A DNA stretch of 64,000 nucleotides from Ensifer oleiphilus (GTDB lineage: Bacteria; Pseudomonadota; Alphaproteobacteria; Rhizobiales; Rhizobiaceae): positions 1 through 64,000 of the forward strand of contig NZ_JABWDU010000014.1 in the NCBI RefSeq assembly GCF_013371465.1, written 5' to 3'. Made by a program: the position numbers and the translations under genes. Of the stretch, positions 35,528 through 54,689 are shown piece after piece. Numbering within the stretch: the first letter of the stretch is position 1; each line of letters opens with the position of its first letter. The notes beneath the pieces were generated by a model, which ran no database searches, was not told the DNA's origin, and worked only from the letters and a program-made list of their open reading frames with translations.

Positions 35528-37336
35528 CTAGCCGGGACCAGCTATAAGATCATAAGCAAAGCCGTGCTCCGCTAGCACCTGAGTGGTTTCGTAAGGCACG
35601 CCAATCCCGCTGATCCGACCGGTTTCAGCGATCAGATGCAGGTTTTTTCGGGGGCGAGAGGCAACAACATAGAGCAGTTTGCTGGCGCTCTCTGCCGCGT
35701 TCGGATCTGAGAAGTGCGGAACCATTCCCTCAAGCAGAGCAAAAGCAATCACTGTATCGAACTCTGCTCCCTTCACGCCATGAATTGTCGAAACTGTTAT
35801 GCCGGCTCGGGTTGCGAACACACGTCTGAACATGGCAACGCTCGATACGCCTTGAACGCCGGCATCCTCCAGTCGCTGGATTTGAACCCGGGACCGTTCA
35901 AAAAACGCGACGTGGTGCTCCTGGAGCGGTGGGAAAAGATCGATCTCAATGTCGATAGCCAACAGCAGTTCCGCGAAGAACAACTCCAAATACTCCAGCC
36001 CGTCGTCCACAGCGATATCGATGCTATTGCAATGGCGCAGCAGGTCACGCGGCGAGATCTTTGAGACGTCGACACCCGCGGTCCTGAAGTGATCCAAAAT
36101 CTCCCTAGCCCATCGCGTGCGCCGGACGAAGAGCTGTGGATCTGGACGAGTCAGGGCGAGACGCGAGACCTTGAACCAGATGTTGTCCTGGTCACGAGAG
36201 AACGGCGCCATGCCAGGGCCATCGAAGCTATACTCAGGAAGTGCTGCAACAAGGCGCCTCGTGACGGCAGCCAGCTGGATCCACTGCGGTCCAACCACGC
36301 AGATTTCGTGAGGGGGAATGCCAAGCGTCTCGATATTGTAACGGATGAGCCGGACGATTTCGTCGTCCAGCTCCTGCTGATTGGTCTCCTGATTGAACGA
36401 GACCACGCTCGGATATTCTTTGTCTGGACCGACCGCTTCGATGACCGCTGGGACGACGCAATAATTTGAAAAGTAGTCGACGATCCTGTCCGAGGAGCGG
36501 TAGTTGCTCGAAAGGCTTTTATCGGCAAGTGCAATGCCTGCCAGAGCGGCGAAGTCCACGCGGCTCATGGCGAAGCCGCCTAGAGATCCGTAGATGGCCT
36601 GATTGGGATCGCCAACGATGAACGTGTTTGTATTCCCAGCTGACGCGTTGAGTATCGCAGCGACGATCGCGTACTGGATCTCCTTTGTATCCTGATACTC
36701 GTCAATCAAGATGTATTTGAACAGCTTGCCGAGCAGGAGGGAAATAGAGGGTTGGGCGATGATGAGGTCGTAAGCGCAACCCAAAATCATCTCAAAATCA
36801 ATCAGCCGGTTCTCTTCCAGATGTTGCCAGTATCCGTTCAACACGGAAAGGGCAGCCAAGCGCCTGTTCGGGTTTGCATTCTCCAGCTGGCACCCGGCTG
36901 TCGAGTAATAATATCTGCAATCGAATGCCCGAACTTGATACGGTGACTGATGGCAAAGTTGGTCCAGAATTGCTTCGGTTTCATGCTGGTCCACCACGCG
37001 AAACCCGTTCTGCAGTTTCTCGTGATAGACGGAGTAAGGCCGCAAGATCCAGTCAAGGCAAAACGAGTGGATTGTACCGATCCAGAGCCGGTCCGTTGCC
37101 ACGCCCAACCGCGCGATCCGCTCGGAGATTTCCTCGGCGGCGCGGTGCGTGTAGGTGATGGCAATGACCCAATGGCGTTCGCTCTCGAGCTTGGATAACT
37201 CTAATGCGATTTTATAGGTCAATGCTCTGGTCTTGCCGCTCCCGGGGCAGGCGGCAAGGTATAGGCTTCCGTCGTGCTCGATTGCGTCAACCTGCTCTTC
37301 GTTGAGGTCGCCGTCTTCCCAGACAAACACCATCAA
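35528..37336 (-). CDS. gajB: GajB-like UvrD-family helicase of a Gabija-type defence pair
   Basis: This 602-aa superfamily 1 helicase has motif I AACPGSGKTRALTYKIALEL, motif II ILIDEYQDTKEIQYAIV, motif III VGDPNQAIYGSLGG, motif V VSTIHGVKGAEFDTVIAFAL and motif VI VVASRPRKNLHLI. It overlaps the upstream OLD-type nuclease gene by four bases (ATGA), the defining arrangement of Gabija (GajA then GajB). Known GajB is ~490 aa, so this one is larger, with extra sequence around 390-490. In Gabija the helicase is thought to sense phage DNA intermediates and trigger the nuclease. Confidence 0.82.
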   Translation of the reverse strand: MMVFVWEDGDLNEEQVDAIEHDGSLYLAACPGSGKTRALTYKIALELSKLESERHWVIAITYTHRAAEEISERIARLGVATDRLWIGTIHSFCLDWILRPYSVYHEKLQNGFRVVDQHETEAILDQLCHQSPYQVRAFDCRYYYSTAGCQLENANPNRRLAALSVLNGYWQHLEENRLIDFEMILGCAYDLIIAQPSISLLLGKLFKYILIDEYQDTKEIQYAIVAAILNASAGNTNTFIVGDPNQAIYGSLGGFAMSRVDFAALAGIALADKSLSSNYRSSDRIVDYFSNYCVVPAVIEAVGPDKEYPSVVSFNQETNQQELDDEIVRLIRYNIETLGIPPHEICVVGPQWIQLAAVTRRLVAALPEYSFDGPGMAPFSRDQDNIWFKVSRLALTRPDPQLFVRRTRWAREILDHFRTAGVDVSKISPRDLLRHCNSIDIAVDDGLEYLELFFAELLLAIDIEIDLFPPLQEHHVAFFERSRVQIQRLEDAGVQGVSSVAMFRRVFATRAGITVSTIHGVKGAEFDTVIAFALLEGMVPHFSDPNAAESASKLLYVVASRPRKNLHLIAETGRISGIGVPYETTQVLAEHGFAYDLIAGPG

Positions 37337-39468
37337 GCGTGTCCCAGAACATCGATGATGACGTCACCCGCCATCGCGCCGATAATCGCTTCTCGAAGTG
37401 GTTCTATCTGCAAATCGCCAGCGCGGAATGCTTCCACCTGGGCACGCAACGCCAGAACCTGCGCCTCTGAAATAACGGCCGGATCCGTGTGAAATTTTAG
37501 CCGGTGATCAATCATGTTCGCCAGTACTCGCCGGCTCAGGGGTTTGTGTGCGGTAAAAATCGCTTCAATCAGGTAGCTGGGGATTCGCGTTGTTCCTGTC
37601 ACCAGCTTGGCAACCTGAATTGCCAGCCAACCCTTCTTGGCGTAGCTCGCCATTGCGAGGATCCGCTTTCCGTAGGTTGCCACATCGCCGGACCGCAGCT
37701 CCGCGGTCGCAGCAACAATGGTTGCGGCGTCGCTGTAGACGGAGTTGAGCACCGAAACTGTCAGCTCGACATTCCCGGCCGCAACGAAGTCAACTTCGAA
37801 CGTACGCGGCGCGTAGTGAACCGAAATCCAGTCGTTTCCATCCTTGAAGGCCGTCAATCGAGTGCGTCGTGCGACGCCAGCTTCCTGCGAGCCGAGCGCC
37901 TTCTCTTTGGCTTTTTTCAACGCATCAGGATCGTCCGGATGCGGGTCAGTGTTGAAAAAGGTGGCGTCCAAATCGGTCACGATTGCGCAACGTCGACGAA
38001 TGCGATCATCGTGAAACAAGACTGCGACGTTTTCGAAGCCAGTGCTGCGGATGTTGATCAGACTGATGCCCAGTTCGTCGAGGCTCACACCCAGCACCTC
38101 TTTAACCAGCACCGGCACGAGGATTTCTTCGGCGTCGCCCTCAACTAGAATCACGCTTTTCGCGAACAGTAGATTGCTGCGGACGGCGTCGAGATAGCGC
38201 TGAATGCTACGGATTTTTGGTTCTTCCAGGCCAGCACTCGGCTGGAACGCTTCGCAGCGCGGACCGCTCCGGCCCAAGATGTTGACATTCTCAATGTTGC
38301 TAACTTCGGAAATTTGGGTTGAGTGCGTGGAGTATATCACCTGGGTGTCGGGGTAGCTCAATCGGTCGAAAAGGGTCTTCTGAATATGTGTGTGAATGTG
38401 CGCCTCGGGTTCCTCAATGACTAGGAAGTTAGCGCAGGCCTGCTTTGCTTTCTGATACTTGAACTCGAGAAGCTTGAGGGTGAGAAATATGAGGTTGGCG
38501 CCGCCGAGACTCAGCTCGTTGATGGCTCCCTCGTATTGATCATCCGTCTCGCCAACAAACAATTTTAGGGATTGGAAAAGCCGATCAGCTTCACCCGGGA
38601 CAGCCGATCGCACTGCGAGGCTCGCTGGCGAATAAGTTTCGCCGGCAGCATCCCGGATCGTTTGGCGAATGTCGGCCCGGATTTCTCCGACGTCGGGAAT
38701 TGCTTCGATCTCGCTGTTCAGTTCGTTCACCCGGTCAGTGATCGGGGCAAGCACTGCCGGATCCAGATCCCCACTTTTGCTGCGGAGGAGCGTCAAAAGG
38801 GGATTTGTTCTCTGTCCCTGGAACTCACTGACTACGTCACGAAGGGCTTGAATGAAGGTGAAGCAAACCTCCTTGCTGACCGACATTATGCCTGGAACCC
38901 GTGCTCCTAGGGCCGCTGGATGAAGCTCTGCCGGAAACTGCACGGTCTCGAAATTTCCGACGAGTTCCTGGTACACGGTGGGATCAGAAAAGTCCGCGGT
39001 GCTTTTGCCGGTGAAAACGGTTTCGTAGTCGTTCAACGTGACCGCATTCAAGATCGCAGCCAAACCCGCGTGATCGTCTTCATCGAGTTGCGCCAAACGC
39101 GTCCGGATCGCGGCATTCGGTCGGAAAATGAGATTGTAGGTTGCCCGAGCAATCGCTTCGTCTTCGATCACTCCGGTCCCATGTAGGAAAAGTGCTTGTA
39201 CGGCTTCGTCCTGAGACACCTCCGCAAATTCTATGCTGATGATGATCCAATGACCGCGCCAGTTGCCAATCCCGCGATGAAAATCGCTTTCCTCCATGCG
39301 ATACGCCCAGCGAAGGAAATCGTCGTCCAGCATCAGACGCATCGCGCGGAAGAGATTGGTCTTGCCCGATCCGTTTTCACCGATGACGGTGTTAATGCCC
39401 TTGTTGAAACGAAAACTTGCGCGCTCGAAATTTCGATAATTTACAAGCTGAACGCGGGAAATATGCAT
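37333..39468 (-). CDS. gajA: GajA-like OLD-family ATPase/TOPRIM nuclease
   Basis: The 711-aa product has an ABC-type ATPase head: start MHISRVQLVNYRNFERASF, Walker A GENGSGKTNLF, signature ELSLGGANLIFL, Walker B FLVIEEPEAHIH and switch STHSTQIS. A C-terminal TOPRIM nuclease follows, with ILVEGDAEEILVPVL and the acidic AIVTDLDATFF. This is class 2 OLD architecture, as in GajA (~580 aa); the extra length lies mostly after the TOPRIM. I chose ATG 39468; a GTG at 39507 is possible. The overlap with the UvrD-type gene supports a Gabija-like system that nicks phage DNA when nucleotide levels fall. Confidence 0.83.
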   Translation of the reverse strand: MHISRVQLVNYRNFERASFRFNKGINTVIGENGSGKTNLFRAMRLMLDDDFLRWAYRMEESDFHRGIGNWRGHWIIISIEFAEVSQDEAVQALFLHGTGVIEDEAIARATYNLIFRPNAAIRTRLAQLDEDDHAGLAAILNAVTLNDYETVFTGKSTADFSDPTVYQELVGNFETVQFPAELHPAALGARVPGIMSVSKEVCFTFIQALRDVVSEFQGQRTNPLLTLLRSKSGDLDPAVLAPITDRVNELNSEIEAIPDVGEIRADIRQTIRDAAGETYSPASLAVRSAVPGEADRLFQSLKLFVGETDDQYEGAINELSLGGANLIFLTLKLLEFKYQKAKQACANFLVIEEPEAHIHTHIQKTLFDRLSYPDTQVIYSTHSTQISEVSNIENVNILGRSGPRCEAFQPSAGLEEPKIRSIQRYLDAVRSNLLFAKSVILVEGDAEEILVPVLVKEVLGVSLDELGISLINIRSTGFENVAVLFHDDRIRRRCAIVTDLDATFFNTDPHPDDPDALKKAKEKALGSQEAGVARRTRLTAFKDGNDWISVHYAPRTFEVDFVAAGNVELTVSVLNSVYSDAATIVAATAELRSGDVATYGKRILAMASYAKKGWLAIQVAKLVTGTTRIPSYLIEAIFTAHKPLSRRVLANMIDHRLKFHTDPAVISEAQVLALRAQVEAFRAGDLQIEPLREAIIGAMAGDVIIDVLGHA

Positions 39469-39940
39469 GAGGCACCGTTCGTGAATCGCAGATAAGGAAA
39501 TGTACACGTAAAGCTGGACTGTTGCATCGACTTTGGGCCCGCCTCCGGTTGGAGGCCGCGGAAAACATGTTCAAGCCCATATAAGTTTTTCAAAAGGTTA
39601 GGTTGCCCCGAGACTTCGCCGGTGCTTCGGCGGGGTATCTCTGACCGCAACTGGTGGAGGCAGCGTACTCAGGACGCTGCCTCCACCATGAGGCTCCTGT
39701 CCGGCCTTCATGGCGTTGCAGATTGCATCAAAGCCCTGCTTGCGGACGGTCTCGTCCGGCATCAGCTAACGGCTGACAATAGCGGCAGTGAGGGCACCGT
39801 CGGGAGAGCGACCACCCAAGGCATGCAGGAGCGCGCGTTTTCGGGCATTCCAGCGTGCTACTTATCTCGTTGAAATCGTCGGTGACGTCTCGCAAACTTC
39901 AACGGGCCGTTGTAGTCGTTGGGGTACGAGAGGGGCCTTG
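39469..39940. other. Gene-free spacer with a 15-bp perfect hairpin
   Basis: No supportable gene is seen. The notable feature is a perfect inverted repeat, TGGTGGAGGCAGCGT at 39652-39666 and its complement at 39674-39688, with a 7-base loop. There is no T-run after it, so it is not a simple intrinsic terminator. Confidence 0.6.
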
Positions 39941-40007
39941 ATGCGGCGCGTTCGAATCCTTCAAATCGGTGACATCCACTACCCGGATTGACGGCTCCAC
40001 CAAGTAA
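39941..40007 (+). pseudogene. 5' stub of a deleted calcineurin-like metallophosphoesterase gene
   Basis: ATG 39941, with AGAGGGG five bases upstream, encodes MRRVRILQIGDIHYPD and then stops at 39989-39991. ILQIGDIHYPD is the standard first metal-binding motif (GDxH) of calcineurin-like phosphoesterases, followed normally by ~250 more residues. Shifting one base from 39987, the sequence reads IDGSTK-stop (TAA 40005-40007), which looks like the native gene end. An out-of-frame internal deletion joining the two ends explains this. The next gene starts 22 bp later. Confidence 0.6.
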
Positions 40008-40029
40008 TCTGGACGCGAGGATAGGCGCA

Positions 40030-42582
40030 ATGCGTGACATCGCCGATGCAGTGAAGGTTGGAGAGCGCAATCGCGATACGATGATGCTTGTTCGCAATTA
40101 TTGCGCCCATGCGCGCGTCGAGAGGTTCGGCGGGATCGGGATGCTTGTGCAGGTTACCGGCCTTCCCATAGGCCACCATGGTATGCGCTGTGATTTCGCG
40201 CCCGAAGGCGGCATGTCGAGCTGGGATTTGAGAGACGCCGTTATCGATTTCTACGACCGCAACTGCGAAAACTGTGCCCATCGCAAACCCATCGGACTGC
40301 CCAATCTTCTCGAAATCATTGCCGAGCGTGATCGCGAAAGGACAAGGCGCGAAGCCGAGGTAAAGGCCGATGAGCAGGCGTCGGCGACGGCCCTTGCTGA
40401 GCGCGATGCAGTGCGTGCAGCGTTGTTACCGAGGCTCGGACCGGTTGGGCGCACCTTGCTCGAAGACATCGGCGCGTTCGACGCAGACCGCTCATCTGAT
40501 AATTGCGAGCGTGTGACGCAGAGCGCGCGCCTCGCACCGGAGTACTTTTCTCCGGAACTCGTCGAGTATGTGTTTGCGCTTGCGAGCGCTCAACGATGGT
40601 TTGCCGAGCCCGCGCTCACCATACTCGCCGCGGTGGGAGCCGACGACACGTTGATTGTCAAACTGGCGATCTCGATTCTACAGCCCGGCTATCCGTCGCA
40701 AGTCGCAATTGAAAAGCTGCTGGCGCGGCTCAACGCCATCCCCGCTGGTTCGGTCGCTAATATTCTGAGTGCCGCCATCGATCTCGCGAGCCCTGATGAC
40801 CGGGACTTTATTTATGGCGACGGCGAGCGGCGGCTCGCCGGCAATGCCGCTTTTCTGGAAGCCTTGTGGCTCCAATTTCCCGACGAGGTCATCGCCGTCA
40901 TCGAAAAAATGCTGCTCGGCGGCAAACGGTCCGCCCTCGAGCGTGCGGGTCGAGGTCTCCACGTATTGCAGGCATCCGATCCGAACGCCGCAAAACCAAT
41001 CCTGCGCACTCTGGTGTCGGTTTATGTGCGTGCGCCAAGTCTTGTGTCAGATCTGAGAGAAGGCGAAGATCGGCTACCAGATCTCGCTGCTGCATTGAAC
41101 AGCGCCTTTGATGCCGCGCCCCAAGAAGTGGACGCTCTGCTGCAGTCGTTGCAGATGGGCGCCCCTGCGCCCCAACGCGTTCGTATCGCGAAGGCATATG
41201 CGCACGCCGTGGACGTCGGATATAATGATCCACCAATTGCCGCGACATCGTTGCGACATTCCTTGGCACTGCGGCGGCTCGTATGGATCCCCACTGTCGA
41301 GCGCGACGACAGGGTCCTGGACGAGGTGACTTCGGCCTTTCGCTCTGGCCCGAAAGGGCTGGAAAATATCATCCGTGACCAACTCGATGCGTTCATCGGC
41401 GCCTTGTTCCTGCTTGACGATCGGCTCACCGAACTCGATGCCGTCATGAATGAACCGGCCGAGAACACTATCGCGGCGATGGAGCGAAACAGCCGACGGA
41501 TGGTGGTCCGCGGCCTCATGGTACAGTTTGTGGAATGGGCGAGCGAGGCGGCTGCCGGGAATGAGCCAGCGGTGGCTAAGATCATCGGAACCTTCGACAC
41601 CATTCCCGACGGAAGAGACAATCTTCGCGGCGTGCTCCTCGGGGCGACAAAAGAATTGTCGCATGATTTGAACGGGCTGAAGCAATTGCTGCCCCACCTT
41701 TACTCAGCCCTCGTCGGACCATCTGCCATCGTTCGATCGTACGCTGCGACAGCGGTCGGCGAGCTGTCTTATCGAAGCCGGGAGAACATTCCCGATCTCC
41801 TATTCGAAGCGTTCGGGGCTCTGTTGTGGGATCAATATGTGGTGGTCCACAAATCGACCGTTGCAGCATTTCATCGCTCGATCATTCCAGAACCGTATCG
41901 GATCAATGCAGCGCAGGCTATTCTGAACCTCATTCGCTATTACCGCATGCAGTCGAGCGAGGACCATTTTCTGACGGAATGCGTGAGCATTCTAGCCGGT
42001 ATGGCCGACCTTTTTGGCCAGTCCAACGGTACGATAAGGTGTTACCTCATTGAGGTCGCAATGGGCATCGACCCGATCTTCCTGAGGTCGGGCATCCTGT
42101 CTTTGTCGCACAGCCTCGGAACGGATCCGGAATTCGCCAAGCTTGCCGCCCGCATGATCCCGCATCTGGTGGACCGCTACAATCAATCCGACAGGGCGCT
42201 TGATCTCATTCGGCGGATTGCGCCTCAGGGGGTGAAGGCCCACGCCCAGACCTTGCACGACACCGCTGTCCAAGTCGTAGACGCCGATCTGCAAACGTCG
42301 TTGGGGATCGTCGAGGCTTTCTCGCTCGCCGGAATGTCGAAGGAGGCCGACGACCTTGTCACTGCACTGTTGGATCGCAACGGCAATACCGTGCGGGTAC
42401 GCCGTCGCCGCACTTTGTTGCAATGGCCGCAATTTGCCCTTCGGTTTGAGGCGGCAGTCACGGCGCGAGACGCAGAGGCGATCTCAGCGGCGAGCGGTGC
42501 CTGGAGAAACGCAGCCGCAACGGATGCACAAGATGAGGAGGATGAGCATGAACGTCGTGCTCGCTCAAGCCTACCCTTCTAG
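40030..42582 (+). CDS. Large helical-repeat-like protein of a putative defence operon
   Basis: From ATG 40030 (GAGGATAGG upstream) the product is 850 aa; TTG 39988 would add 14 residues. The N-terminus has a conserved-looking Cys/His/Gly-rich module: RNYCAHARVERFGGIGMLVQ, GLPIGHHGMRCDFAP and NCENCAHRKPIGLPNL, possibly metal-binding. A charged coiled coil follows (~100-140). The remainder is alpha-helical and HEAT-like, with recurring helices such as PSAIVRSYAATAVGELSYRS and RGVLLGATKELSHDLNGLKQ. It shows no ATPase motif. It overlaps the PD-(D/E)XK gene downstream by 35 bp, so the two form one operon. The phosphoesterase stub upstream suggests an original three-gene system. No known system name fits. 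Confidence 0.7.
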   Translation: MRDIADAVKVGERNRDTMMLVRNYCAHARVERFGGIGMLVQVTGLPIGHHGMRCDFAPEGGMSSWDLRDAVIDFYDRNCENCAHRKPIGLPNLLEIIAERDRERTRREAEVKADEQASATALAERDAVRAALLPRLGPVGRTLLEDIGAFDADRSSDNCERVTQSARLAPEYFSPELVEYVFALASAQRWFAEPALTILAAVGADDTLIVKLAISILQPGYPSQVAIEKLLARLNAIPAGSVANILSAAIDLASPDDRDFIYGDGERRLAGNAAFLEALWLQFPDEVIAVIEKMLLGGKRSALERAGRGLHVLQASDPNAAKPILRTLVSVYVRAPSLVSDLREGEDRLPDLAAALNSAFDAAPQEVDALLQSLQMGAPAPQRVRIAKAYAHAVDVGYNDPPIAATSLRHSLALRRLVWIPTVERDDRVLDEVTSAFRSGPKGLENIIRDQLDAFIGALFLLDDRLTELDAVMNEPAENTIAAMERNSRRMVVRGLMVQFVEWASEAAAGNEPAVAKIIGTFDTIPDGRDNLRGVLLGATKELSHDLNGLKQLLPHLYSALVGPSAIVRSYAATAVGELSYRSRENIPDLLFEAFGALLWDQYVVVHKSTVAAFHRSIIPEPYRINAAQAILNLIRYYRMQSSEDHFLTECVSILAGMADLFGQSNGTIRCYLIEVAMGIDPIFLRSGILSLSHSLGTDPEFAKLAARMIPHLVDRYNQSDRALDLIRRIAPQGVKAHAQTLHDTAVQVVDADLQTSLGIVEAFSLAGMSKEADDLVTALLDRNGNTVRVRRRRTLLQWPQFALRFEAAVTARDAEAISAASGAWRNAAATDAQDEEDEHERRARSSLPF

Positions 42583-43990
42583 GATCGCCGCTATCGAGTC
42601 GATCATCGCCCATCCGACCTATGCCGGTGGGACGGAATTGCGCGCACGGGCCCAGGAAGTCGCCTCCGCATCTCAGCTGTTTGGGAAAGCTGCAATCGCG
42701 AAAGATTGGCGGTCCTTCGCCAGCGCCCTGGAAATCTTGAGTTTGCTCGCCGACTGGAGTGAAGCGGTGCACACGGCGGCGATTGACGCCGATCGCTTCT
42801 TGCGTGCCGCTCGACTTCGCTACCGCAAATTCGCGGTCGATTCTGCTCACACGGACTATGGTTTGGCGCTTGCCGCCGCGCTTGCACCTTTGGACGGCGA
42901 TCTCGACGTCGATGCGATGCCGTCACTGCGTGATGCGATAGCGGGGTTGGAGATGCCGGTGGGAATAATTGGCATCGAGGACAGAAGTTATTATGGATCG
43001 CGTGTCGCCGAGGACACGCCCGTCAAACCGGAAGACATCGCCGTTGCATTTCTGGAGTTTGCGATCGATGGAAAAGCCGCCGAGACGTTTCACAGTCTCC
43101 GTGGGGGAGAGGTGCACGATCTCGATCTGACCATTCGGGTGTCGCGGTGGCCCGACGACGCTGAGCGCCTGGTGATTGCGCCAGTCTCAATCGAGCCGCC
43201 AAGCACCTGGGATTTTCCGACTTTTGAATTTCTCCGTCCTGGCGGACAACCACCATTCGTATTCCAGCGGCAAGGCAGGATGGCGCTGCACGCTTCCCAA
43301 GGGTTCAATGCCCGACCACTTGAATTCCGTTACGCCGCCGAGTTTCAGCCGCGGCCGAACCGCGAGGAATCGGTTGTCGTTGCCGGGCAACGGACTCTAC
43401 GTCTTGATGGGACTGACACGTCGCGTCACCCCCTTACAGGCTACGGAGAAGTTGACGCGAAAATTATCAAGCTGCGCGAGCGTCTAAGATTGGAGCCTCT
43501 GATTTCAGAGACGGATATTCGCGACCTTCTCGCTTTGCTCACTCCGGTCGGCAATCTTATGGGACAGGCGGTACAGGACAAACGGTATCCCGATCCAATC
43601 GACGAGGCCGCGTTTCAAGCCGACTTCCAACAATTTTTACGATCGAACGCTGCGATCGGGAGTGAGCTGGAGGTCCAAGGCCACGTGACTGGAGGCAGGG
43701 TTGATCTGACATTCCGCGGAATAAGGATCGAACTGAAGTCCGAGCGGACCCGCCGCCTTTTGCCAGACGATTGCCAAAAATTCGCCCCGCAGGCAGCAAG
43801 TTATGCTGTAGGGAGCGGCCGTCGTGTTGCCCTCTTATGTGTGCTCGATTCGAGCCCGAAGTCGCAACCACCATTTCCTGTAGCCGACGGGTTGACGATC
43901 ATTCCGGTCGATACGGGCACGAGCCCTGTATATGTTGTGAGTTGCTTGCTTCAGGGGGGGCTGGCAAAACCCAGTGACCTGTCGCGATGA
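42548..43990 (+). CDS. PD-(D/E)XK nuclease-like protein partnered with the helical-repeat protein
   Basis: ATG 42548, seven bases after GAGGAG, gives 480 aa, overlapping the upstream gene's 3' end. The first ~340 residues are of unknown type and include a helical part and a beta-rich part (SIEPPSTWDFPTFEFLRPGG). The C-terminal ~130 residues show a restriction-endonuclease fold: helix FQADFQQFLRSNAAIGSELE, Asp ~386 in GGRVDLTFRG, Glu-x-Lys ~395-397 in IRIELKSER, then a long helix and the strand RRVALLCVLD. That is D-(9)-ExK spacing. It is probably the nuclease effector of the pair, with the repeat protein as sensor or scaffold; this is inference. Confidence 0.7.
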   Translation: MNVVLAQAYPSRIAAIESIIAHPTYAGGTELRARAQEVASASQLFGKAAIAKDWRSFASALEILSLLADWSEAVHTAAIDADRFLRAARLRYRKFAVDSAHTDYGLALAAALAPLDGDLDVDAMPSLRDAIAGLEMPVGIIGIEDRSYYGSRVAEDTPVKPEDIAVAFLEFAIDGKAAETFHSLRGGEVHDLDLTIRVSRWPDDAERLVIAPVSIEPPSTWDFPTFEFLRPGGQPPFVFQRQGRMALHASQGFNARPLEFRYAAEFQPRPNREESVVVAGQRTLRLDGTDTSRHPLTGYGEVDAKIIKLRERLRLEPLISETDIRDLLALLTPVGNLMGQAVQDKRYPDPIDEAAFQADFQQFLRSNAAIGSELEVQGHVTGGRVDLTFRGIRIELKSERTRRLLPDDCQKFAPQAASYAVGSGRRVALLCVLDSSPKSQPPFPVADGLTIIPVDTGTSPVYVVSCLLQGGLAKPSDLSR

Positions 43991-45872: not shown

Positions 45873-47891
45873 CTACCTGAGTTGAGGCTCAGCCAACAGT
45901 TGGTCCACAATCGGCGAGAGCAGTTCTCTATCACGTAAAGATATTGTCGGCATTTTGCGTGCCTGAACCGGGACAATCAATGAATCGTCGAGATTAAATA
46001 GCCACAGACCGATATTGCCATATGCATGTTGGCTCAGCGCCATGCTCAGTTCGTCAAAACACCAAGGGCTTAGTGCATAGTGTTTGCTCCACAATACGGC
46101 GCAAATACTGCTTCTGAGCATCGCGTTTTCGATTGACGCAGGGACCATTTGATCTGGTCGGACTTCGTCGTCGCCAATGAGGGCCTCAATGCCCCGCAGA
46201 CGTAGGGCGTTCGCAAAATCTTGTGCCACGCCAGCATCTTGGCTTGCACGACTTATGAAGATTGTCCGAGGTGTTCCCTTGGTAGAAAATGCACGGCTGA
46301 CACGCCTCGCCTGCATCATATTAGCGATACGGATCGTCTGCTCGACGCCTATGTCCTCTGCAAAGAATGAGACGTCAATGTCCGGGTTCAGCCGCGCCCA
46401 GTCTCGGCGTTGGTTTGCCCTTTGCCCTGCGCCCCCGAGGAATGAAAATGGGATGATTGGGAGGCTCTTTGCCTCCGCCAGATGCAGCAGCGTATTGGCG
46501 GTCTTTGAAACCTTTCCGCCGAGCGCGACAACAGCATCGACCTTTTCCAGCGCTTGCAGTTGGGCGAGCAGCCACGCTTGAGACCACGACGAGCCGTCAT
46601 TAACTTCCGGCCCTGGGTAGTTCCACTCTTGAACGATGAGATCGGGATGTCCGAGCATCTTCTTCAGCAGGCCTTTTTTCTTCTCCACTTCAGGATGCGA
46701 CGGACTATGAAAGTGAATAACGCCTCGGACTTTCGCGTCCGCATATCCCATTGCCGCGTAGTAGTCCGCGGAATCTGGAAAGGGACTGCAGACGACCAAG
46801 TGAGCACCGGCTTCAGCAAGCGTTTTTCCAAGCTTCATGGATGCCCGGTGCAACCGAGGGGCCTCGGCGTCGGTGTCGTCGGTTTCTCCGGTCACGCCAC
46901 CGATAACAAGAACAGACTTTACGGCAGATTGAAGAACGGCGAGTTGGGTCAGCTTCGCTGATTCGAGTTGGCGGCCCACGTCAGGTTCGAAAAGCCCGGC
47001 CTCCACGCTTGCGATAAACAGCGAAAGCGCGTTCTCCATTGATAACGCCCTGAACGCATTTTTGGCGATTTTTTCAATTTTGTCCTTCCGCTCATCTGCA
47101 AAGTCGGAAATGCCTCTTATGGCCACGACTCTTGGCGCCGGCGTACGAATGCTGCCAGCGTCGAAAATTCCAGCACTTTCCATTTCCATCGCCGCGATTT
47201 TGCGATCGACCTGTTTCTTCAGCCAAGTCAAGAACGCCTTGCCCTTACCAACTACTGGTCCGCTTGCAAGCTTCCTATCATCACCGACTAAAAGGTTGCA
47301 TTCGCCGCGCAGTTGCACGCCGGCCTCGACCAGAGCGTCATCGATACTTTTTGCGATAGTCTCAGATCGCCGTTGTCGCGTCTGGTTCCTCCACGCTTCG
47401 AACTGTTTTCTCCGCGTGTGTCGGAACTTCTGCAGGCGGTCGAGCAAGCGCTGTGATGATTGGAAATGGTTCCCGGATGTATCGAGGCTCCAGGTCCTTT
47501 TCTCTCCCACGGAGGCGGAATTCGCGAGATACTCGTTCACACTATCCGGCACGAACACATCGCCCGGCTCAAGATCATTGGACAAAGAACCGGCGATGCC
47601 GATCACAACGATGTCGGAAGGCTTGAGTTTCTCAATAGCCACAGATGCGATATTGGCCGATCGTGTGTTTCCCATCTTGCCGGCCGCCACGACGGCTACG
47701 CTATACCGCTTTCCGGCTTCGGTAGATTGGATGCTCCCCGAAAACCAAGTGAGTGCGACGTCCTCGAGCTCTTGAGCAGTGAATCCGTCGCCTAGAAAAG
47801 CGATTACCGTGTCGAGCTCTTCTGCGAGTGCCACGTACAGCAGGATGTCTATGGTTTGCTCAGTGCTACTACTTTCTTGATTATCCCGCAT
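45873..47891 (-). CDS. Nucleoside phosphorylase-SLOG-TIR fusion protein
   Basis: The 672-aa product has three domains. Residues ~10-310 are a PNP/MTAN-type nucleoside phosphorylase, with VVIGIAGSLSNDLEPGDVFV, the signature AAMEMESAGI near 240 and VVAIRGISDFADE. Residues ~335-510 are a SLOG-like Rossmann domain: VLVIGGVTGETDDTDAEAPR, LGKTLAEAGAHLVVCSPFPD, KVDAVVALGGKVSKTANTLL and SLPIIPFSFLGGAGQ. Residues ~540-672 are a TIR domain: RTIFISRASQDAGVAQDFAN, and SPWCFDELSMAL with the likely NAD-cleaving Glu near 612. TIR and SLOG domains are known immune effector and sensor modules (Thoeris, CBASS). The phosphorylase at the front is unusual. ATG 47891 is chosen over an in-frame start at 47933. Confidence 0.82.
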   Translation of the reverse strand: MRDNQESSSTEQTIDILLYVALAEELDTVIAFLGDGFTAQELEDVALTWFSGSIQSTEAGKRYSVAVVAAGKMGNTRSANIASVAIEKLKPSDIVVIGIAGSLSNDLEPGDVFVPDSVNEYLANSASVGEKRTWSLDTSGNHFQSSQRLLDRLQKFRHTRRKQFEAWRNQTRQRRSETIAKSIDDALVEAGVQLRGECNLLVGDDRKLASGPVVGKGKAFLTWLKKQVDRKIAAMEMESAGIFDAGSIRTPAPRVVAIRGISDFADERKDKIEKIAKNAFRALSMENALSLFIASVEAGLFEPDVGRQLESAKLTQLAVLQSAVKSVLVIGGVTGETDDTDAEAPRLHRASMKLGKTLAEAGAHLVVCSPFPDSADYYAAMGYADAKVRGVIHFHSPSHPEVEKKKGLLKKMLGHPDLIVQEWNYPGPEVNDGSSWSQAWLLAQLQALEKVDAVVALGGKVSKTANTLLHLAEAKSLPIIPFSFLGGAGQRANQRRDWARLNPDIDVSFFAEDIGVEQTIRIANMMQARRVSRAFSTKGTPRTIFISRASQDAGVAQDFANALRLRGIEALIGDDEVRPDQMVPASIENAMLRSSICAVLWSKHYALSPWCFDELSMALSQHAYGNIGLWLFNLDDSLIVPVQARKMPTISLRDRELLSPIVDQLLAEPQLR

Positions 47892-48414: not shown

Positions 48415-50259
48415 CTAAATGTCCACGACAGCGTACAACTCGGCGCCACAGGCCATGGCTGAGAGGCGAGATGCCAAGAGCAGGGTGCTCAGCTGCTTCA
48501 TCCGAAGCAGCCTGTTACTGCCGTTCGTGAGGGCTTCACAGGCTGTGACTTCGGACTGCGTCAGCCGAGGCTGAACTACCATAGCGACTTTCTTGTAACG
48601 ATCAGGAAGCTGCTCAATGGCCTTGATGAAGTCGTCGCGGTTCTTCTGCCGGACGCCATCTTTCCAGACCGCCGAGCCGATCTTCTTGCCCTTACCCTTG
48701 GTCAACTCCGTCCCCAAGGGGCGGCGCTCGAGGTGGCGCAGGTTTTTGACGGCTTGCGAAACGACAATCTCGAAATCAGAGACCGAGGCCTGGCGATTGA
48801 CCTTGGCGCTGCCGGAGGCCTTCACATGAACCAGTGTGACGACCTTCTTCGTGGGATCAAGGTGGATAAAGTCGGCCAGTTCCATCGATCCATCGTCGCA
48901 CGCGAGCCAACCTGCCGGCCGTCCAGCGGCGTCAACGAACACTTTTTCCAAGACGAATGCGAACAGCGAGTTGTCACCGTTCACGCCGATCGCGCTCGCC
49001 AGCGACTGCCCTTTAACGAGGGCCGGCTTCTCCTTCTCCACATCGAAGCCTTGGAAAGACTGGAATGTCCAATCAAACGGCTGATCCGTGTACTGGCTAG
49101 AATAGCAACGACCCTGCGCAATCGCGTGACCGCTTTCGTAGTGGATCTTGACCATGTCCACATCGGTCAGCGCTCGTCGGCACTCTTGGTGGTCTACCGT
49201 GCTGGACGCCGCGGGGTTCTTCCAGGTCAATGCCAGCCCCACAACGCCGTCGGTAAAGGTCACCGCGATTTCCGCCTGCCCCAGAGCCACGCCCAGAAGG
49301 GTGCATTCGACCGTGAACGAAAGCCCCGAAGCCGCTCCTTTGGCAGGGGGAATTACTTCGAAGGTCGCGTCATAGGCCCATTTACGAGCGAAGGCGTAGT
49401 CGGCCGGGTCGACTACGTCTTCAGAGAGAAGATCCTTGGGTGTCACGCTGATCTCGTAGGCGTCCTGTACAGCCGATACATCGGTGATCTGCTGAGCCAG
49501 CATTGCAAAGCGCGGCGAGGCTGGTGCCGTTTGCGCGTGGAGGAAGACGCGCTCCATCGTTTCCACGAACTCGTCTAGAGACTTCTGGCGTCCAATCCAG
49601 ATTCGTCCGCTGCTGGGAGCGGCGCCAATCGAGACCGGGCGATTTTTGGCGTCCGTTAGCCCCGGTACGCTCGGCCGACTCCTTACAGCCGAGAGGACGA
49701 AGGTCTGGTCGCCGAGGGGATCTAGGGCATGTTCCAGAGCCGATCCGGTCAGTGACTTGCTGTTAGGCTTGACCGCGGTTGGGGTGTGGACGCCGCTAAG
49801 ATGCAGGACCGACGCCTCGTCGCCGACAAAGGATTCGATGATAGCGCGCGGTACGGGCCGGGCGAGTTTCAAGCCCTTCAAAATGCGGTCACGCATCGCG
49901 CCGTCCGAAGCATTCAAGGCCGCCCGCGCGCCTTGAACGGCGATGATGATGAATTGATGAGTTTTATCAGTTAGAGTATTCGCCGGGGCCCATGCTGGCG
50001 AACGCACTTCTTCATAGATAATAGTCCGAAGATAGAAGTCGCGCACCTGATCATCGCCGTCGCTGATCACACGACGAGCGACGCCGTCAGACCCTTTAAT
50101 CTTCGCCCTCGCCGCCTTTCCGAGCCTATCACGCAGGACCGCGTCGGCGGATTTGTCGGAGCTGTCCAACAAGGCCGGCGCAAGAAAGGGGGTCAGTTTT
50201 TTGGTGTCTAACGTTGCTTTTGCCACGGCCATATTCCGTCTGGGCGACGCTTTTTGCAT
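48415..50259 (-). CDS. PD-(D/E)XK nuclease-like protein of unknown system
   Basis: This 614-aa protein has no ATPase or helicase motif. The N-terminal ~400 residues are unrecognised (RVISDGDDQVRDFYLRTIIY, EICVTP-like strands, and a beta-rich middle). The C-terminal part carries a nuclease-like block: LFAFVLEKVFVDAAGRPAGW, then CDDGSMELADFIHLD and VTLVHVKASGSA, followed by the helix SDFEIVVSQAVKNLRHLE. The D/E..ADFI...H.KAS arrangement recurs in PD-(D/E)XK domains fused to bacterial defence helicases. It appears monocistronic. ATG 50232 (MAVAKATLD) is an alternative start. Role in phage defence is inferred from motif and location. Confidence 0.6.
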   Translation of the reverse strand: MQKASPRRNMAVAKATLDTKKLTPFLAPALLDSSDKSADAVLRDRLGKAARAKIKGSDGVARRVISDGDDQVRDFYLRTIIYEEVRSPAWAPANTLTDKTHQFIIIAVQGARAALNASDGAMRDRILKGLKLARPVPRAIIESFVGDEASVLHLSGVHTPTAVKPNSKSLTGSALEHALDPLGDQTFVLSAVRSRPSVPGLTDAKNRPVSIGAAPSSGRIWIGRQKSLDEFVETMERVFLHAQTAPASPRFAMLAQQITDVSAVQDAYEISVTPKDLLSEDVVDPADYAFARKWAYDATFEVIPPAKGAASGLSFTVECTLLGVALGQAEIAVTFTDGVVGLALTWKNPAASSTVDHQECRRALTDVDMVKIHYESGHAIAQGRCYSSQYTDQPFDWTFQSFQGFDVEKEKPALVKGQSLASAIGVNGDNSLFAFVLEKVFVDAAGRPAGWLACDDGSMELADFIHLDPTKKVVTLVHVKASGSAKVNRQASVSDFEIVVSQAVKNLRHLERRPLGTELTKGKGKKIGSAVWKDGVRQKNRDDFIKAIEQLPDRYKKVAMVVQPRLTQSEVTACEALTNGSNRLLRMKQLSTLLLASRLSAMACGAELYAVVDI

Positions 50260-51282: not shown

Positions 51283-53634
51283 CTATGCTGCTTCCCATAC
51301 CTGATTCAAAATCCTGGCAGCAAGCGCCGCCTTGTCCTGCGGCAAGAAGCGGCCGTAATGATTGGCAACCATCTCCGGTGTGTCCTGGATGGCGTAGCTT
51401 GCCTGCTCGTAGGAACCGGTTTGTTTCAGGATATGAGTGGCAAGGACATCTCGGACGTTGTGGGGACCATGCGGAAGCAAGCCCTTGATGGCGCCGCGAC
51501 CGGTGTACGGGTTGTAGATGCCATAGCGTTGGATCGCCGTCCGCCAAGCCTCGTAGAAGGTCGTTTGGTCATAAGACGCGTCCTTGGTCTTGGTTTTGAC
51601 GGTCTTGACGAAAAGGGTGCCGGGATCTTCGGCGCCAGCGAGCAGCACGGCACGATGACGCTCGATATACGCGTTCAGATGGGGATAGAGGTCCTGCAGG
51701 TTCGGAAGGATCAAGCGGAACGGTTTCGAGCCGAAGAATGACGAGTTCGCATTTTTGAAGGCGTTGGAGGGGATCAGAACTTCCCAACCGCCATCGCGCT
51801 CGCTCCAGCGGATCTCACCACGCTTCATGTCTTCAAGACGGCGCTCCGACGTCGGGAAATGTCCCCGCGGACAAACAAGCAGTTGCCTCAGGTTCTTCTG
51901 GCGCAGTCCGAGATGGAGGCCAAGGCGCAGCATGAGGAAGGATCGAACCGCTTCGGCCGCCGACCGCGGGTAGCGATCCTGATCCGGCATTCGCCTGATG
52001 ATTTCGTCGGTGATCTTGCGATACTCGGCGAGCGGACTATCGGCCTCGAGCACGGACATGATCGGCTCGAAGGGGTCGCGGTGCACACGCGCGACACGCT
52101 GAATCTCCCTCGAGCGTTGCGATGCATGCTTGAAGACGATGTCACACGACGCATGCCAATCCTTTTGAGCCACAGCGATCTCCGCAGATGTCACCAGGCC
52201 GGGGATTGGTCTCGTATTCTGGACGAGCTCCGGATGTTGCCACATCCAACCCGTCTCGGGCCGAACCATGCCGAGAAGCACGCTCAACATGTCTTCTTCC
52301 CATTTGGTGTAGAAGCCACGGCGCTTCTCGCGCCACTGCAAATACCAATCCCAGATCCCGGGGAAGACAAGAAGGCCGAAGGTCAGTTGGCTGAGCGGCA
52401 CACCATAGCCTTTGACAGCGCTCTTTGGTGAAGCTGCCAAGGCACCGAACATGAGGCCAAGGTGCTCGATCTTCTGGGCAGCCGTCTCCTCTCCCCAGAC
52501 TCCATTACGCTGGAACCCGAGCGTCGTCAGGGTCGCGGTCTTGAAGCGTACGAGGTTTGCCATCTCCATCGCGAGCCGGGGAGGGGCATCAACAACGCCA
52601 GCAAGCAGATCCGGATCTTCGATCGCCGCATGATCGGATTCTCCACCCCATACAAGATCGCTCGATGCAAGCCGCGGCGAAAGCGTGCTTCCATAAGAGA
52701 TACCAGGAAAGCGAATGGCATATCGCTGCCGGATCGCTGCCGCCTGGAAGCGCCGATAGTCGGTGGTGCCGGAGATGATCACGCGGCGTACCCAATCGAT
52801 GATCTCTTCGCGCTTGCTGAAAGGCAGGCTATTGAAGTCATCCGGCAGGTGCCAGGCGAGCCGCCGCCGCTCTGCAGGGCTGACGTCACTCTCCAACTCA
52901 AGCCCGGACACTGATCGTGACTGATGCGGCAGCCGTTCTTTGAAGTATCCCACAGGGAGCCGGTAGCGTTTCTCAATGAGGGCGAGGATCTCGAAACTGT
53001 CCGTCGATCTTGGGACGCGTGTGCCGTTCGTCCAACTGAGCAGCGTCTTATTGTCGAAGGTCGAGTGGTCGCCGGCGACTGCGCGGTGAAGATGCCAGTA
53101 CGTGTCACCGTGTCGGCGCATGTGGTAGTTCAGCGCTTCTTGGAAATCTGACGGATTTTCAGTCCAATCGAAGAGAGGCGCCGGATGCTCCTCGATCGCC
53201 CTTGGTGGAACACCTGGCTCTGCCCTCGGCCGCGTCGACGGTGTTGGTCGTGCTGCGCTCGACGTATTGCTTTGCTTCACAATAGGTTCGCGGGTCGCGC
53301 GGCGGGGGCTCTCGATCGGCGGCGTGGGCGTCGGCCGGTCGTGCTCGACAGGTCGTTCCTGATCGATCCAGCGGATGATCGCTTCGAGCCCGGATTGCAG
53401 GCCCTTCTTGAGCGCGGGGGTCATCTCGTCTTCCAAGCCGCAGGCATCAGAAACGGATCGCCAATCTATACGGCCCATCCGCATCGGCGGATACTTGCGG
53501 TAAAGGATCAAGCTGGAGAGATAGGGCTTGATGTTCTCAAGGGTCTGCCCGGAAACAAGTGGCGCTACGCGGACATCGCAGAAGTCGGAAATCTTGCGCT
53601 GAAAATGAAGTGATGAAGCAGATTGGGTTTTCAT
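51283..53634 (-). CDS. Large tyrosine recombinase-like protein
   Basis: This 783-aa protein ends in a tyrosine-recombinase catalytic domain: Arg in LGLHLGLRQKNLRQLLVCPR, then HNVRDVLATHILKQTGSYEQ with the HxxR pair, and Tyr in ANHYGRFLPQDKAA. The first ~500 residues are far longer than in ordinary integrases and include a Pro-rich linker (~95-145) and an HTH-like TFDNKTLLSWTNGTRVPRST. Proteins like this occur in islands, singly or with accessory genes, and may move or maintain the element. It lies 51 bp from the HigBA operon on the same strand. Confidence 0.72.
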   Translation of the reverse strand: MKTQSASSLHFQRKISDFCDVRVAPLVSGQTLENIKPYLSSLILYRKYPPMRMGRIDWRSVSDACGLEDEMTPALKKGLQSGLEAIIRWIDQERPVEHDRPTPTPPIESPRRATREPIVKQSNTSSAARPTPSTRPRAEPGVPPRAIEEHPAPLFDWTENPSDFQEALNYHMRRHGDTYWHLHRAVAGDHSTFDNKTLLSWTNGTRVPRSTDSFEILALIEKRYRLPVGYFKERLPHQSRSVSGLELESDVSPAERRRLAWHLPDDFNSLPFSKREEIIDWVRRVIISGTTDYRRFQAAAIRQRYAIRFPGISYGSTLSPRLASSDLVWGGESDHAAIEDPDLLAGVVDAPPRLAMEMANLVRFKTATLTTLGFQRNGVWGEETAAQKIEHLGLMFGALAASPKSAVKGYGVPLSQLTFGLLVFPGIWDWYLQWREKRRGFYTKWEEDMLSVLLGMVRPETGWMWQHPELVQNTRPIPGLVTSAEIAVAQKDWHASCDIVFKHASQRSREIQRVARVHRDPFEPIMSVLEADSPLAEYRKITDEIIRRMPDQDRYPRSAAEAVRSFLMLRLGLHLGLRQKNLRQLLVCPRGHFPTSERRLEDMKRGEIRWSERDGGWEVLIPSNAFKNANSSFFGSKPFRLILPNLQDLYPHLNAYIERHRAVLLAGAEDPGTLFVKTVKTKTKDASYDQTTFYEAWRTAIQRYGIYNPYTGRGAIKGLLPHGPHNVRDVLATHILKQTGSYEQASYAIQDTPEMVANHYGRFLPQDKAALAARILNQVWEAA

Positions 53635-53774: not shown

Positions 53775-54689
53775 ATGATGGGATTCGGGGTCTTCATTCA
53801 TCGCTCAGATTCGATCTACGACGACAGCCCGGCAGAACAGTACCAGTTTCCAAGCCAATATCTTGGACGGGTGCGGGCCTGCCTTGGCGATTGGATTATC
53901 TACTACGAGCCGCGGAAGGTTGCGGCGACGCGAGGCTATTTCGCTGTCGCCAAGGTGGCCGAGGTCATCCCGGACCCGAAGGCGCCGGGCATGTATCTCG
54001 CGCTCATCGAACCGGGCACTTATCTCGACTTCATCAATCCGGTTCCTTTCAGCGGGACAGAAGGTGTGATTGAGCGCGGCGTTCTAAACGAAAAGGGCAA
54101 GATATCTGGCAGGGCACAGTCTGCGGTGAGGCCTATTTCGAACGCGGACTTCAACCGGATAGTGGGCATTGGTCTTGACGAGCAAGAGCCAGAGTTGCCG
54201 CGGACCGGGGCATTGGAAACTAGGAGCTCGGTTGAAGGACTGGGGGAAGGCGCTCAAACGCCGTTCGTGTTCGAGCATGAGCGCAATCGCGTCATGCAGC
54301 TATCGTCACGAATAGTTCGCGACCGTCTGTTCCGCCGTCTTGTCGTCCACGCCTATGACAAGCGCTGCGCTATCACAGGCCTGAAGCTCATCAACGGCGG
54401 GGGACGCGCCGAAGTCGATGCCGCGCACATAAGACCCGTCGAGGCGAATGGACCCGACATCCTGACCAATGGTATCGCGCTGTCAGGCACGGCGCACTGG
54501 ATGTTCGATCGTGGCCTGATCAGTCTGTCCGATGACCTCGACATCCTGGTTTCCAGGCACGCCAACGATCCAGACAGCATTCAAGGGCTGATCAACAAGA
54601 CCGGGCGGGCGATCGTGCCGACGCGGGCATTCGAGAGGCCGCATCCACATTTCCTTCGGTGGCATCGCGAGAATTGTTTCAAGTACTGA
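53775..54689 (+). CDS. HNH endonuclease with N-terminal PUA/EVE-like domain
   Basis: This 304-aa protein has two domains. Residues ~1-110 (YQFPSQYLGRVRACLGDWII, GYFAVAKVAEVIPDPKAPGM, YLDFINPVPF) look like a PUA/EVE-type reader of modified bases. Residues ~185-280 are an HNH_2 nuclease: LVVHAYDKRCAITGLKLING, EVDAAHIRPVEANGPD and NGIALSGTAHWMFDRGLISL. The His pair in DAAHI and the later His/Asp are intact. This layout suits a modification-dependent (type IV-like) restriction enzyme. No methyltransferase gene is nearby, which agrees. It is transcribed divergently from the recombinase. Confidence 0.8.
   Translation: MMGFGVFIHRSDSIYDDSPAEQYQFPSQYLGRVRACLGDWIIYYEPRKVAATRGYFAVAKVAEVIPDPKAPGMYLALIEPGTYLDFINPVPFSGTEGVIERGVLNEKGKISGRAQSAVRPISNADFNRIVGIGLDEQEPELPRTGALETRSSVEGLGEGAQTPFVFEHERNRVMQLSSRIVRDRLFRRLVVHAYDKRCAITGLKLINGGGRAEVDAAHIRPVEANGPDILTNGIALSGTAHWMFDRGLISLSDDLDILVSRHANDPDSIQGLINKTGRAIVPTRAFERPHPHFLRWHRENCFKY

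What the first reader, a model, noticed from the sequence alone, without database searches (positions are those of the whole stretch)
45873..47891. Single protein joining a nucleoside phosphorylase, a SLOG sensor and a TIR effector
TIR (NADase) and SLOG (ligand-binding Rossmann) domains are both immune modules. SLOG in Thoeris ThsA binds a TIR-made signal. Here a complete-looking PNP/MTAN domain (MEMES and ISDFAD motifs) precedes them in one chain. The PNP could generate or destroy the ligand, or act as the phage-activated trigger for the TIR. I know of no named defence system with exactly this order.
Basis: partly seen in the sequence, partly recalled or inferred. Interest (0 to 1): 0.8.

Follow-up and report, generated by a model that had tools for sequence, protein, structure and literature searches.

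The report
One-protein nucleosidase–sensor–TIR defence gene
A single bacterial protein joins an enzyme that can strip bases off nucleotides, a small-molecule sensor and an NAD-cutting TIR domain, and it probably works as a self-contained anti-virus suicide switch, a one-piece version of systems that normally need two or three genes.

Summary

New here: SLOG-TIR behaves as a chassis whose N-terminal enzyme is exchanged. PNPs of apparently separate origins occur, one type close to the Detocs ATP-cleaving PNP, and a caspase domain in two relatives. None of 8 carrier genomes has a ThsB_TIR (PF08937) gene. Best reading: a one-chain Thoeris-like system in which TIR makes a signal, SLOG reads it, and PNP destroys adenine nucleotides. 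Dual NAD/ATP depletion is the main rival. ThsA's two signal-contacting residues are not kept, so the ligand probably differs. No activity was tested. New variant of a known kind.

The parts
45873..47891 (-). PNP-SLOG-TIR gene, 672 aa (longest ORF runs to 47933, 686 aa)
   Evidence: ORF; start choice; 124 of 144 listed homologues with the same order
46980..47855 (-). PNP/MTAN nucleosidase domain, residues 27-318
47817..47819 (-). codon of E39, equivalent of MTAN catalytic E12
   Evidence: E in 128 of 129 complete PNP domains, one gap
47178..47180 (-). codon of E252 (MEMES motif; MTAN E174)
   Evidence: E in 129 of 129
47103..47105 (-). codon of D277 (ISDFAD motif; MTAN D197)
   Evidence: D in 129 of 129
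46290..46928 (-). SLOG domain, residues 336-548
45876..46268 (-). TIR domain, residues 556-686
   Evidence: Pfam TIR_2 1.5e-13, TIR 1.4e-8
46050..46052 (-). codon of E628, TIR catalytic glutamate (motif SPWCFDEL)
   Evidence: E in 124 of 124 complete TIR domains
35528..39507 (-). context: Gabija pair, GajB 35528-37336 and GajA 37333-39507
   Evidence: PADLOC GajA 1012 bits, GajB 810 bits
39988..43990 (+). context: Olokun pair, OloA 39988-42582 and OloB 42356-43990
   Evidence: PADLOC OloA 3.5e-50, OloB 8.2e-42
48415..50259 (-). context: next gene upstream, 614 aa, partial match to candidate defence model PDC-S71; no sign that it is a partner
   Evidence: 4.8e-12, residues 401-514; not similar to the gene beside the Klebsiella copy

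Best explanation
A self-contained abortive-infection protein that works like a one-chain Thoeris with a Detocs-type effector. On infection (trigger unknown, inferred) the C-terminal TIR domain uses NAD+ and makes an ADP-ribose-type signal (active-site Glu shown intact; product inferred). The neighbouring SLOG domain binds it (fold shown; ligand inferred and probably not the 3'cADPR bound by the ThsA SLOG). Binding changes the oligomer and unleashes the N-terminal PNP, which cuts adenine off ATP or related nucleotides (active site shown; substrate inferred from kinship with the Detocs PNP). Collapse of the ATP pool, together with NAD+ use, stops the phage.
For: Catalytic residues of PNP and TIR are conserved. 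Defence setting: Gabija and Olokun in the window; Detocs-like and Gabija genes by the enterobacterial copies; Detocs-like genes beside the Pseudomonas wadenswilerensis copy. SLOG-TIR is a chassis: the N-terminal part is PNP type A (83), B (26) or C (1) in 110 complete proteins, a caspase in L003 and L016, or nearly absent in L004 and L017. Type A and B PNPs share 23% identity on average while their SLOGs share 50%; A-A pairs in the same SLOG range share 53% in PNP. Type B groups with the two Detocs-like PNPs at 100/98, and holding type A (all fusions) and B together as one clade is rejected, p-AU 0.008. Type A PNPs on other C-termini (NB-ARC-TPR; EAD7-like) mix with those of this family. Detocs PNP cleaves ATP (PMC11249213, passage read); type IV Thoeris pairs a TIR with a caspase-like protease (PMC12847820, passage read). 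No PF08937 ThsB_TIR gene in 8 of 8 carrier genomes, so a signal, if needed, must come from elsewhere, most simply from the chain's own TIR.
Against: No activity is measured. By my reading of the alignments, ThsA's two ligand contacts (R371, E403) fall on Q458/L459 and L482/L483, so the SLOG ligand is unproved. In L004 a SLOG-TIR without PNP lies between two ThsB_TIR genes, which suits TIR as effector rather than signal maker. Other kinds of TIR gene were not sought genome-wide. The window's own PNP is type A, outside the clade of type B and Detocs-like PNPs, so ATP as substrate is less certain than for type B. The tree has long branches and a weakly placed outgroup. The family is rare, and flanks could be judged in few lineages.
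Confidence: 0.45

Rival explanations
1. Dual-effector receptor: SLOG binds a nucleotide signal made elsewhere or by infection itself, and both ends fire, PNP on ATP and TIR on NAD+. TIR is an executioner NADase, not a signal maker.
For: SLOG-TIR proteins without PNP exist (L004, L017, L013), and in L004 the SLOG-TIR gene lies between two ThsB_TIR genes as ThsA might. TIR E628 invariant. TIR NADases can act as effectors (PMC12847820, passage read).
Against: No PF08937 ThsB_TIR gene in any of 8 carrier genomes (other TIR families not sought) and no neighbour shared across lineages that could make the signal. A second depleting effector makes the exchange of PNP for a caspase less needed.
Confidence: 0.28
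2. One reading: PNP senses infection or makes or removes the ligand, and TIR is the only effector.
For: PNP domains in conflict systems were predicted to release a base as a second messenger (PMC7159879, passages read).
Against: PNPs of apparently separate origins and a caspase occupy the same position; a caspase cannot make that ligand. The Detocs PNP depletes ATP (PMC11249213, passage read).
Confidence: 0.12
3. An accessory of Detocs: the gene is a second output of, or backup for, the Detocs kinase/receiver operon.
For: Adjacent to Detocs-like genes in two unlike lineages (L007, and L002/L012/L020/L021/L028). In E. coli, the 6 genomes of 5426 with the full gene are the same 6 that hold the Detocs-like kinase gene.
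Against: No other PNP gene in the held stretches of the window, L005, L006 or the Streptomyces loci L009-L011, L014, L015. The protein has no receiver domain. The E. coli copies are one near-identical lineage (99% or more).
Confidence: 0.08
4. A metabolic (housekeeping) nucleosidase fusion with no role in defence.
For: The SLOG-TIR relative in L013 lies among ordinary genes (PhoD phosphatase, ferric reductase), and a number of scanned neighbours of the family matched no PADLOC model.
Against: Patchy: 1 of 16 genomes in the genus, 1 of 199 in the family sample, 1 of 398 in the phylum sample, each time the window's own genome. Defence genes nearby in several lineages.
Confidence: 0.04

Closest known systems
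Thoeris type I (ThsA SIR2-SLOG + ThsB TIR)
   Same: N-terminal nucleotide-destroying enzyme joined to a SLOG domain of the same fold, plus a TIR domain
   Different: One chain instead of two or more genes; effector is PNP, not SIR2; SLOG ligand contacts R371/E403 not kept; no PF08937 ThsB_TIR gene in 8 carrier genomes
Thoeris type IV (TIR + caspase-like protease)
   Same: Two relatives join a caspase domain, SLOG and TIR in one chain (L003, L016)
   Different: PNP in place of caspase here; single chain. Type IV seen only as a passage in PMC12847820; the original paper is not held
Detocs (DtcA kinase, DtcB receiver, DtcC receiver-PNP)
   Same: PNP effector; the window PNP's best PADLOC match is PDC-M60C, the model that the receiver-PNP of L007 matches at 593 bits. 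Equating PDC-M60 with Detocs rests on its kinase/receiver/receiver-PNP make-up and on recall
   Different: No kinase or receiver domain; control is by SLOG-TIR; the window PNP is type A, outside the clade of type B and Detocs-like PNPs
CBASS Cap17 (Pfam PF18178 + PNP)
   Same: SLOG-type domain and PNP in one immune effector; PF18178 is listed as TIR- and PNP-associating SLOG in PMC10952713 (passage)
   Different: By the model's name (Cap17-like_N) the SLOG part precedes PNP there; PF18178 not listed for the window protein, nor in the 25 of 29 families shown for 43 homologues

Membership tests
MTAN/PNP nucleosidase superfamily (PF01048) | Profile match over curated cut-off and MTAN fold | tested here: met
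MTAN/PNP nucleosidase superfamily (PF01048) | Catalytic E12, E174, D197 of MTAN | tested here: met
   E39, E252, D277; 128, 129 and 129 of 129
Enzymatic TIR | TIR profile and catalytic glutamate | tested here: met
   E628 in 124 of 124
Enzymatic TIR | NAD+ cleavage | not testable with these tools
   Needs assay
SLOG superfamily | SLOG Rossmann fold | tested here: met
STALD SLOG (ThsA type, PF18185) | Profile match over cut-off | tested here: not met
   Not listed for the window protein at E up to 10; 1 of 43 homologues at E 0.081; P0140 at 0.21
STALD SLOG (ThsA type, PF18185) | Ligand contacts R371 and E403 (PMC7272460, PMC10022894, passages) | tested here: not met
   Align with Q458/L459 and L482/L483 by my reading; register certain to about one residue
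Thoeris | Separate ThsB-type TIR gene (PF08937) beside the effector gene | tested here: not met
   0 of 8 carrier genomes, own genome included; other TIR families not sought genome-wide
Thoeris | TIR product activates a SLOG-bearing effector | not testable with these tools
   Needs biochemistry
Detocs | Receiver domain joined to PNP, with kinase and receiver genes | tested here: not met
   No receiver domain in the protein; none of the window ORFs scanned matched PDC-M60A or B
Cap17 (PF18178) | PF18178 domain | tested here: not met
   Not listed for the window protein at E up to 10; 0 matches in the own genome at E up to 0.001

The most novel reading that the evidence does not exclude
A one-gene Thoeris: TIR signal maker, SLOG receptor and a nucleosidase executioner in a single chain, signalling to itself or to neighbouring copies with a new ADP-ribose-type ligand, on a SLOG-TIR chassis that has separately recruited at least two PNP lineages and a caspase as interchangeable executioners.
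Probability: 0.4. Interest if true: 0.8.

Novelty: new variant of a known kind. Interest (0 to 1): 0.62.

Why it matters
It would link three separately described immune designs (Thoeris signalling, Detocs ATP depletion, caspase immunity) as exchangeable ends of one SLOG-TIR chassis. Because one gene would hold signal maker, receptor and executioner, it makes in-chain TIR signalling directly testable. A SLOG without ThsA's ligand contacts predicts an undescribed TIR-derived signal.

Tried and rejected
Pfam, PADLOC and NCBIfam scans for the SLOG domain found nothing usable; weak Pfam SLOG matches in homologues were LDcluster4 in 3 of 43 and STALD in 1 of 43, best E 0.081. Fold comparison was needed. 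The VIA run on the full-length model showed only PNP/MTAN-superfamily chains in its 50 rows, so the SLOG was folded alone.

A conserved partner gene was looked for by all-against-all BLAST of neighbours: none across lineages, apart from Detocs-like genes in two lineages, an astacin-like gene before the caspase form, and genes shared among related Streptomyces loci. The 614-aa neighbour is not like the gene beside the Klebsiella copy.

The idea that the plasmid 'toll/interleukin-1 receptor' genes beside ThsB relatives (L035-L040) were SLOG-TIR proteins was tested and dropped: no SLOG match there below E 0.1.

Trypsin-like N-terminus of P0139: seen by eye only; no Pfam, PDB or PADLOC support.

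Single-sequence profile comparison with one ThsA-like protein was too weak to use. Phage records and viral contigs: no match. The first genome-contig scan found none; the alignment scan gave 13 loci.

The PNP tree had only a midpoint root. One search added an MTAN and other nucleosidases, but their split from the rest is weak (69/85), several rows are long-branched, and the program warns that long branches meet. The trees hold 10 of 83 type A, 6 of 26 type B, 1 type C, 7 of 12 PNPs with other C-termini and 2 Detocs-like PNPs. The one-clade group was named after the first tree was seen.

The claim that the exact chain is not in print rests only on searches of an open-licence library. Burroughs 2015, Rousset 2023 and Rousset 2025 are recalled, not held.

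Full report

Active sites. MTAN E12, M173, E174, R193 and D197 correspond to E39, M251, E252, R273 and D277. E252 and D277 are kept in 129 of 129 complete PNP domains, E39 in 128 with one gap. TIR E628 is kept in 124 of 124, with W615, S622 and C625 also in 124 of 124; W624 is W in 98 and F in 21. Both enzymes therefore look under selection for catalysis. In the SLOG, G345, G346, G472 and G473 are invariant over the 43 rows of A1, and Q458, H484 and E487 are each kept in 123 of 124. ThsA's ligand contacts R371 and E403 (PMC7272460 and PMC10022894, passages read) fall, by my reading, on Q458/L459 and L482/L483, so this SLOG is a ThsA relative by fold but not by binding residues.

Family. Two searches listed 144 distinct homologues (120 listed of 124 hits; 120 of 133). 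By domain models built from A1, 124 are PNP-SLOG-TIR (12 with PNP under 250 aa), 12 PNP with another C-terminus, 5 PNP-SLOG without TIR and 3 SLOG-TIR with another N-terminus. The sample is biased by the query. Distribution is patchy: 1 of 16 genomes in the genus, 1 of 199 in the family (79), 1 of 398 in the phylum sample (36), 1 of 347 in the Sphingobium family (77) and 1 of 345 in the Enterobacter order (78), each time only the starting genome itself; 2 of 398 in the Pseudomonas genus, namely the genomes of L007 and L006 (73). None in phage records (38) or viral contigs (39).

Module exchange. On the SLOG-TIR chassis the N-terminus varies. Among 110 complete proteins, PNP is type A in 83, B in 26 (the 8 with an organism name are Streptomyces) and C in 1. 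A-B pairs average 23% identity in PNP and 50% in SLOG; A-A pairs in the same SLOG range average 53% in PNP, minimum 36%. In a tree with an MTAN and other nucleosidases, type B joins the two Detocs-like PNPs at 100/98, apart from type A (99/98), and one clade of A (all fusions) with B costs 17.5 log units, p-AU 0.008. Long branches, a weak outgroup split and an after-the-fact group name weaken this. L003 (Thiodictyon) and L016 (Archangium) carry a caspase domain instead (Peptidase_C14 1.1e-6 and 3.8e-6, both over the cut-off), 45% identical to each other, each with a related gene of about 225 aa just upstream (47% identity; Astacin 8.7e-11 for the L016 one). L004 and L017 have almost no N-terminal part. 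Conversely, type A PNP is joined to NB-ARC-TPR (P0105, NB-ARC 25.1 bits, cut-off 23.5) and to an EAD7-like part (P0119, 30.2 bits, just under the cut-off of 32), and these branch among the PNPs of this family. PNP thus behaves as a portable executioner and SLOG-TIR as a portable control unit.

Surroundings. The window gene shows no operon partner: the next ORFs on its strand are 807 bp downstream and about 500 bp upstream. Nearby lie Gabija (GajA 1012 bits, GajB 810 bits) and Olokun. The Klebsiella plasmid copy (L002) is followed by a Detocs-like set, its kinase gene split in two ORFs, and a Gabija pair (GajA 799 bits, GajB 644 bits). The E. coli copies (L020, L021, L028) have the same order with a SLATT-domain gene after the receiver-PNP (SLATT tested on L020); PDC-M60A, B and C match the L020 genes at 74, 77 and 198 bits. 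PADLOC's PDC-M60 is taken for Detocs by make-up and recall. In 5426 E. coli genomes 6 hold the full gene and the same 6 hold the Detocs-like kinase gene; 10 further records hold only remnants of 163-277 bp. In Pseudomonas wadenswilerensis (L007) a strongly matching set (1668, 225 and 593 bits) lies convergent to it, while 5 of 199 genomes of that genus, this one included, have that kinase family. So Detocs-like genes adjoin it in 2 of 5 proteobacterial lineages with usable flanks (window, L005, L006, L007, enterobacteria; L005 has under 1 kb on one side; L008 was too short). L006 lies beside a protein matching the end of DndH, and L009 near a type IV restriction gene and a NACHT protein. Against: L013, a SLOG-TIR relative, lies among ordinary genes, and of the neighbours scanned with PADLOC the following had no match: two in L005, two in L006, three in L009, one in L011 and one in L017. 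Neighbours were scanned selectively, so this is no survey.

Signal source. PF08937 ThsB_TIR is absent from all 8 carrier genomes searched, with 1 of 14 control genomes positive; other TIR families were not sought genome-wide. The only ThsB link is L004, a PNP-less SLOG-TIR between two ThsB_TIR genes (4.6e-22, 9.6e-20). That suggests that SLOGs of this kind read TIR-made signals and, at the same time, that a SLOG-TIR may use its TIR as effector. Where no ThsB exists, the simplest source is the protein's own TIR. This is inference.

Mechanism. Shown: three domains with intact key residues, module exchange, kinship of type B PNP to Detocs-like PNP, defence genes nearby. From the literature: Detocs PNP cleaves ATP to adenine and ribose-triphosphate (PMC11249213, passage); TIRs either deplete NAD+ or make signals, and type IV Thoeris uses a TIR signal to fire a caspase-like protease (PMC12847820, passages). 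Inferred: TIR signal, SLOG reception, PNP firing, ATP collapse. Dual NAD/ATP depletion is the main rival.

Known or new. No family model covers the whole chain in Pfam, PADLOC 2.0.0 or NCBIfam 20.0. The SLOG/TIR/PNP theme is in print: PMC10952713 lists PF18178 as the TIR- and PNP-associating SLOG family of Cap17, and PMC7159879 discusses PNP, TIR and SLOG as conflict modules (passages read). PF18178 is not listed for the window protein and has no match in its genome. I found no paper on this chain in the held library, which lacks most subscription journals. I rate it a new variant of a known kind.

Noticed in passing
L003:4568-7035 and L016:8604-11077: A two-gene set in unlike bacteria (Thiodictyon, Archangium): an astacin-like metalloprotease gene just upstream of a caspase-SLOG-TIR gene (47% and 45% identity between the two loci). 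It looks like a TIR-driven protease relay in one operon.
   Followed up: partly
L020:15001-22179, L021, L028, L002, L012: Enterobacterial five-gene unit: PNP-SLOG-TIR, Detocs-like kinase, receiver, receiver-PNP and a SLATT (DUF4231) gene, on chromosomes and plasmids (L002's is typed IncFIB), near IS elements; short remnants of the first gene remain in other E. coli.
   Followed up: partly
L004:4812-8353, L035, L036, L037, L039, L040: Recurrent plasmid cassette of a ThsB-related TIR gene followed by a gene of about 210 aa (Nmad2 in L004, the only one tested with Pfam), often with an NTP pyrophosphohydrolase and a uracil-DNA glycosylase, beside other TIR genes, patatin or SIR2 genes. It suggests TIR signalling coupled to nucleotide modification.
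   Followed up: partly
L036:7792-8397, L037:4151-4732, L039:2879-3547: About 200-aa proteins next to TIR genes with a GG-loop pattern that looks like a small SLOG domain by eye; not tested.
   Followed up: no
P0139 residues 1-265: N-terminus before SLOG-TIR shows His/Asp/Ser motifs like a trypsin-type protease by eye; no profile support found.
   Followed up: partly
window 35528-56582: Dense defence island: Gabija, Olokun, PNP-SLOG-TIR, a PDC-S71-like gene, an HNH nuclease gene (53775-54689) and a PIN-domain gene (55647-56582), with a weakly integrase-like gene at 51283-53634 (E 0.23); GC is a few percent below the first 30 kb.
   Followed up: partly
L009, L010, L014, L015: Streptomyces PNPs of this family (type B) carry, by eye, an insert of about 50-60 residues in the PNP domain, possibly a small winged-helix; unexplained.
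   Followed up: no
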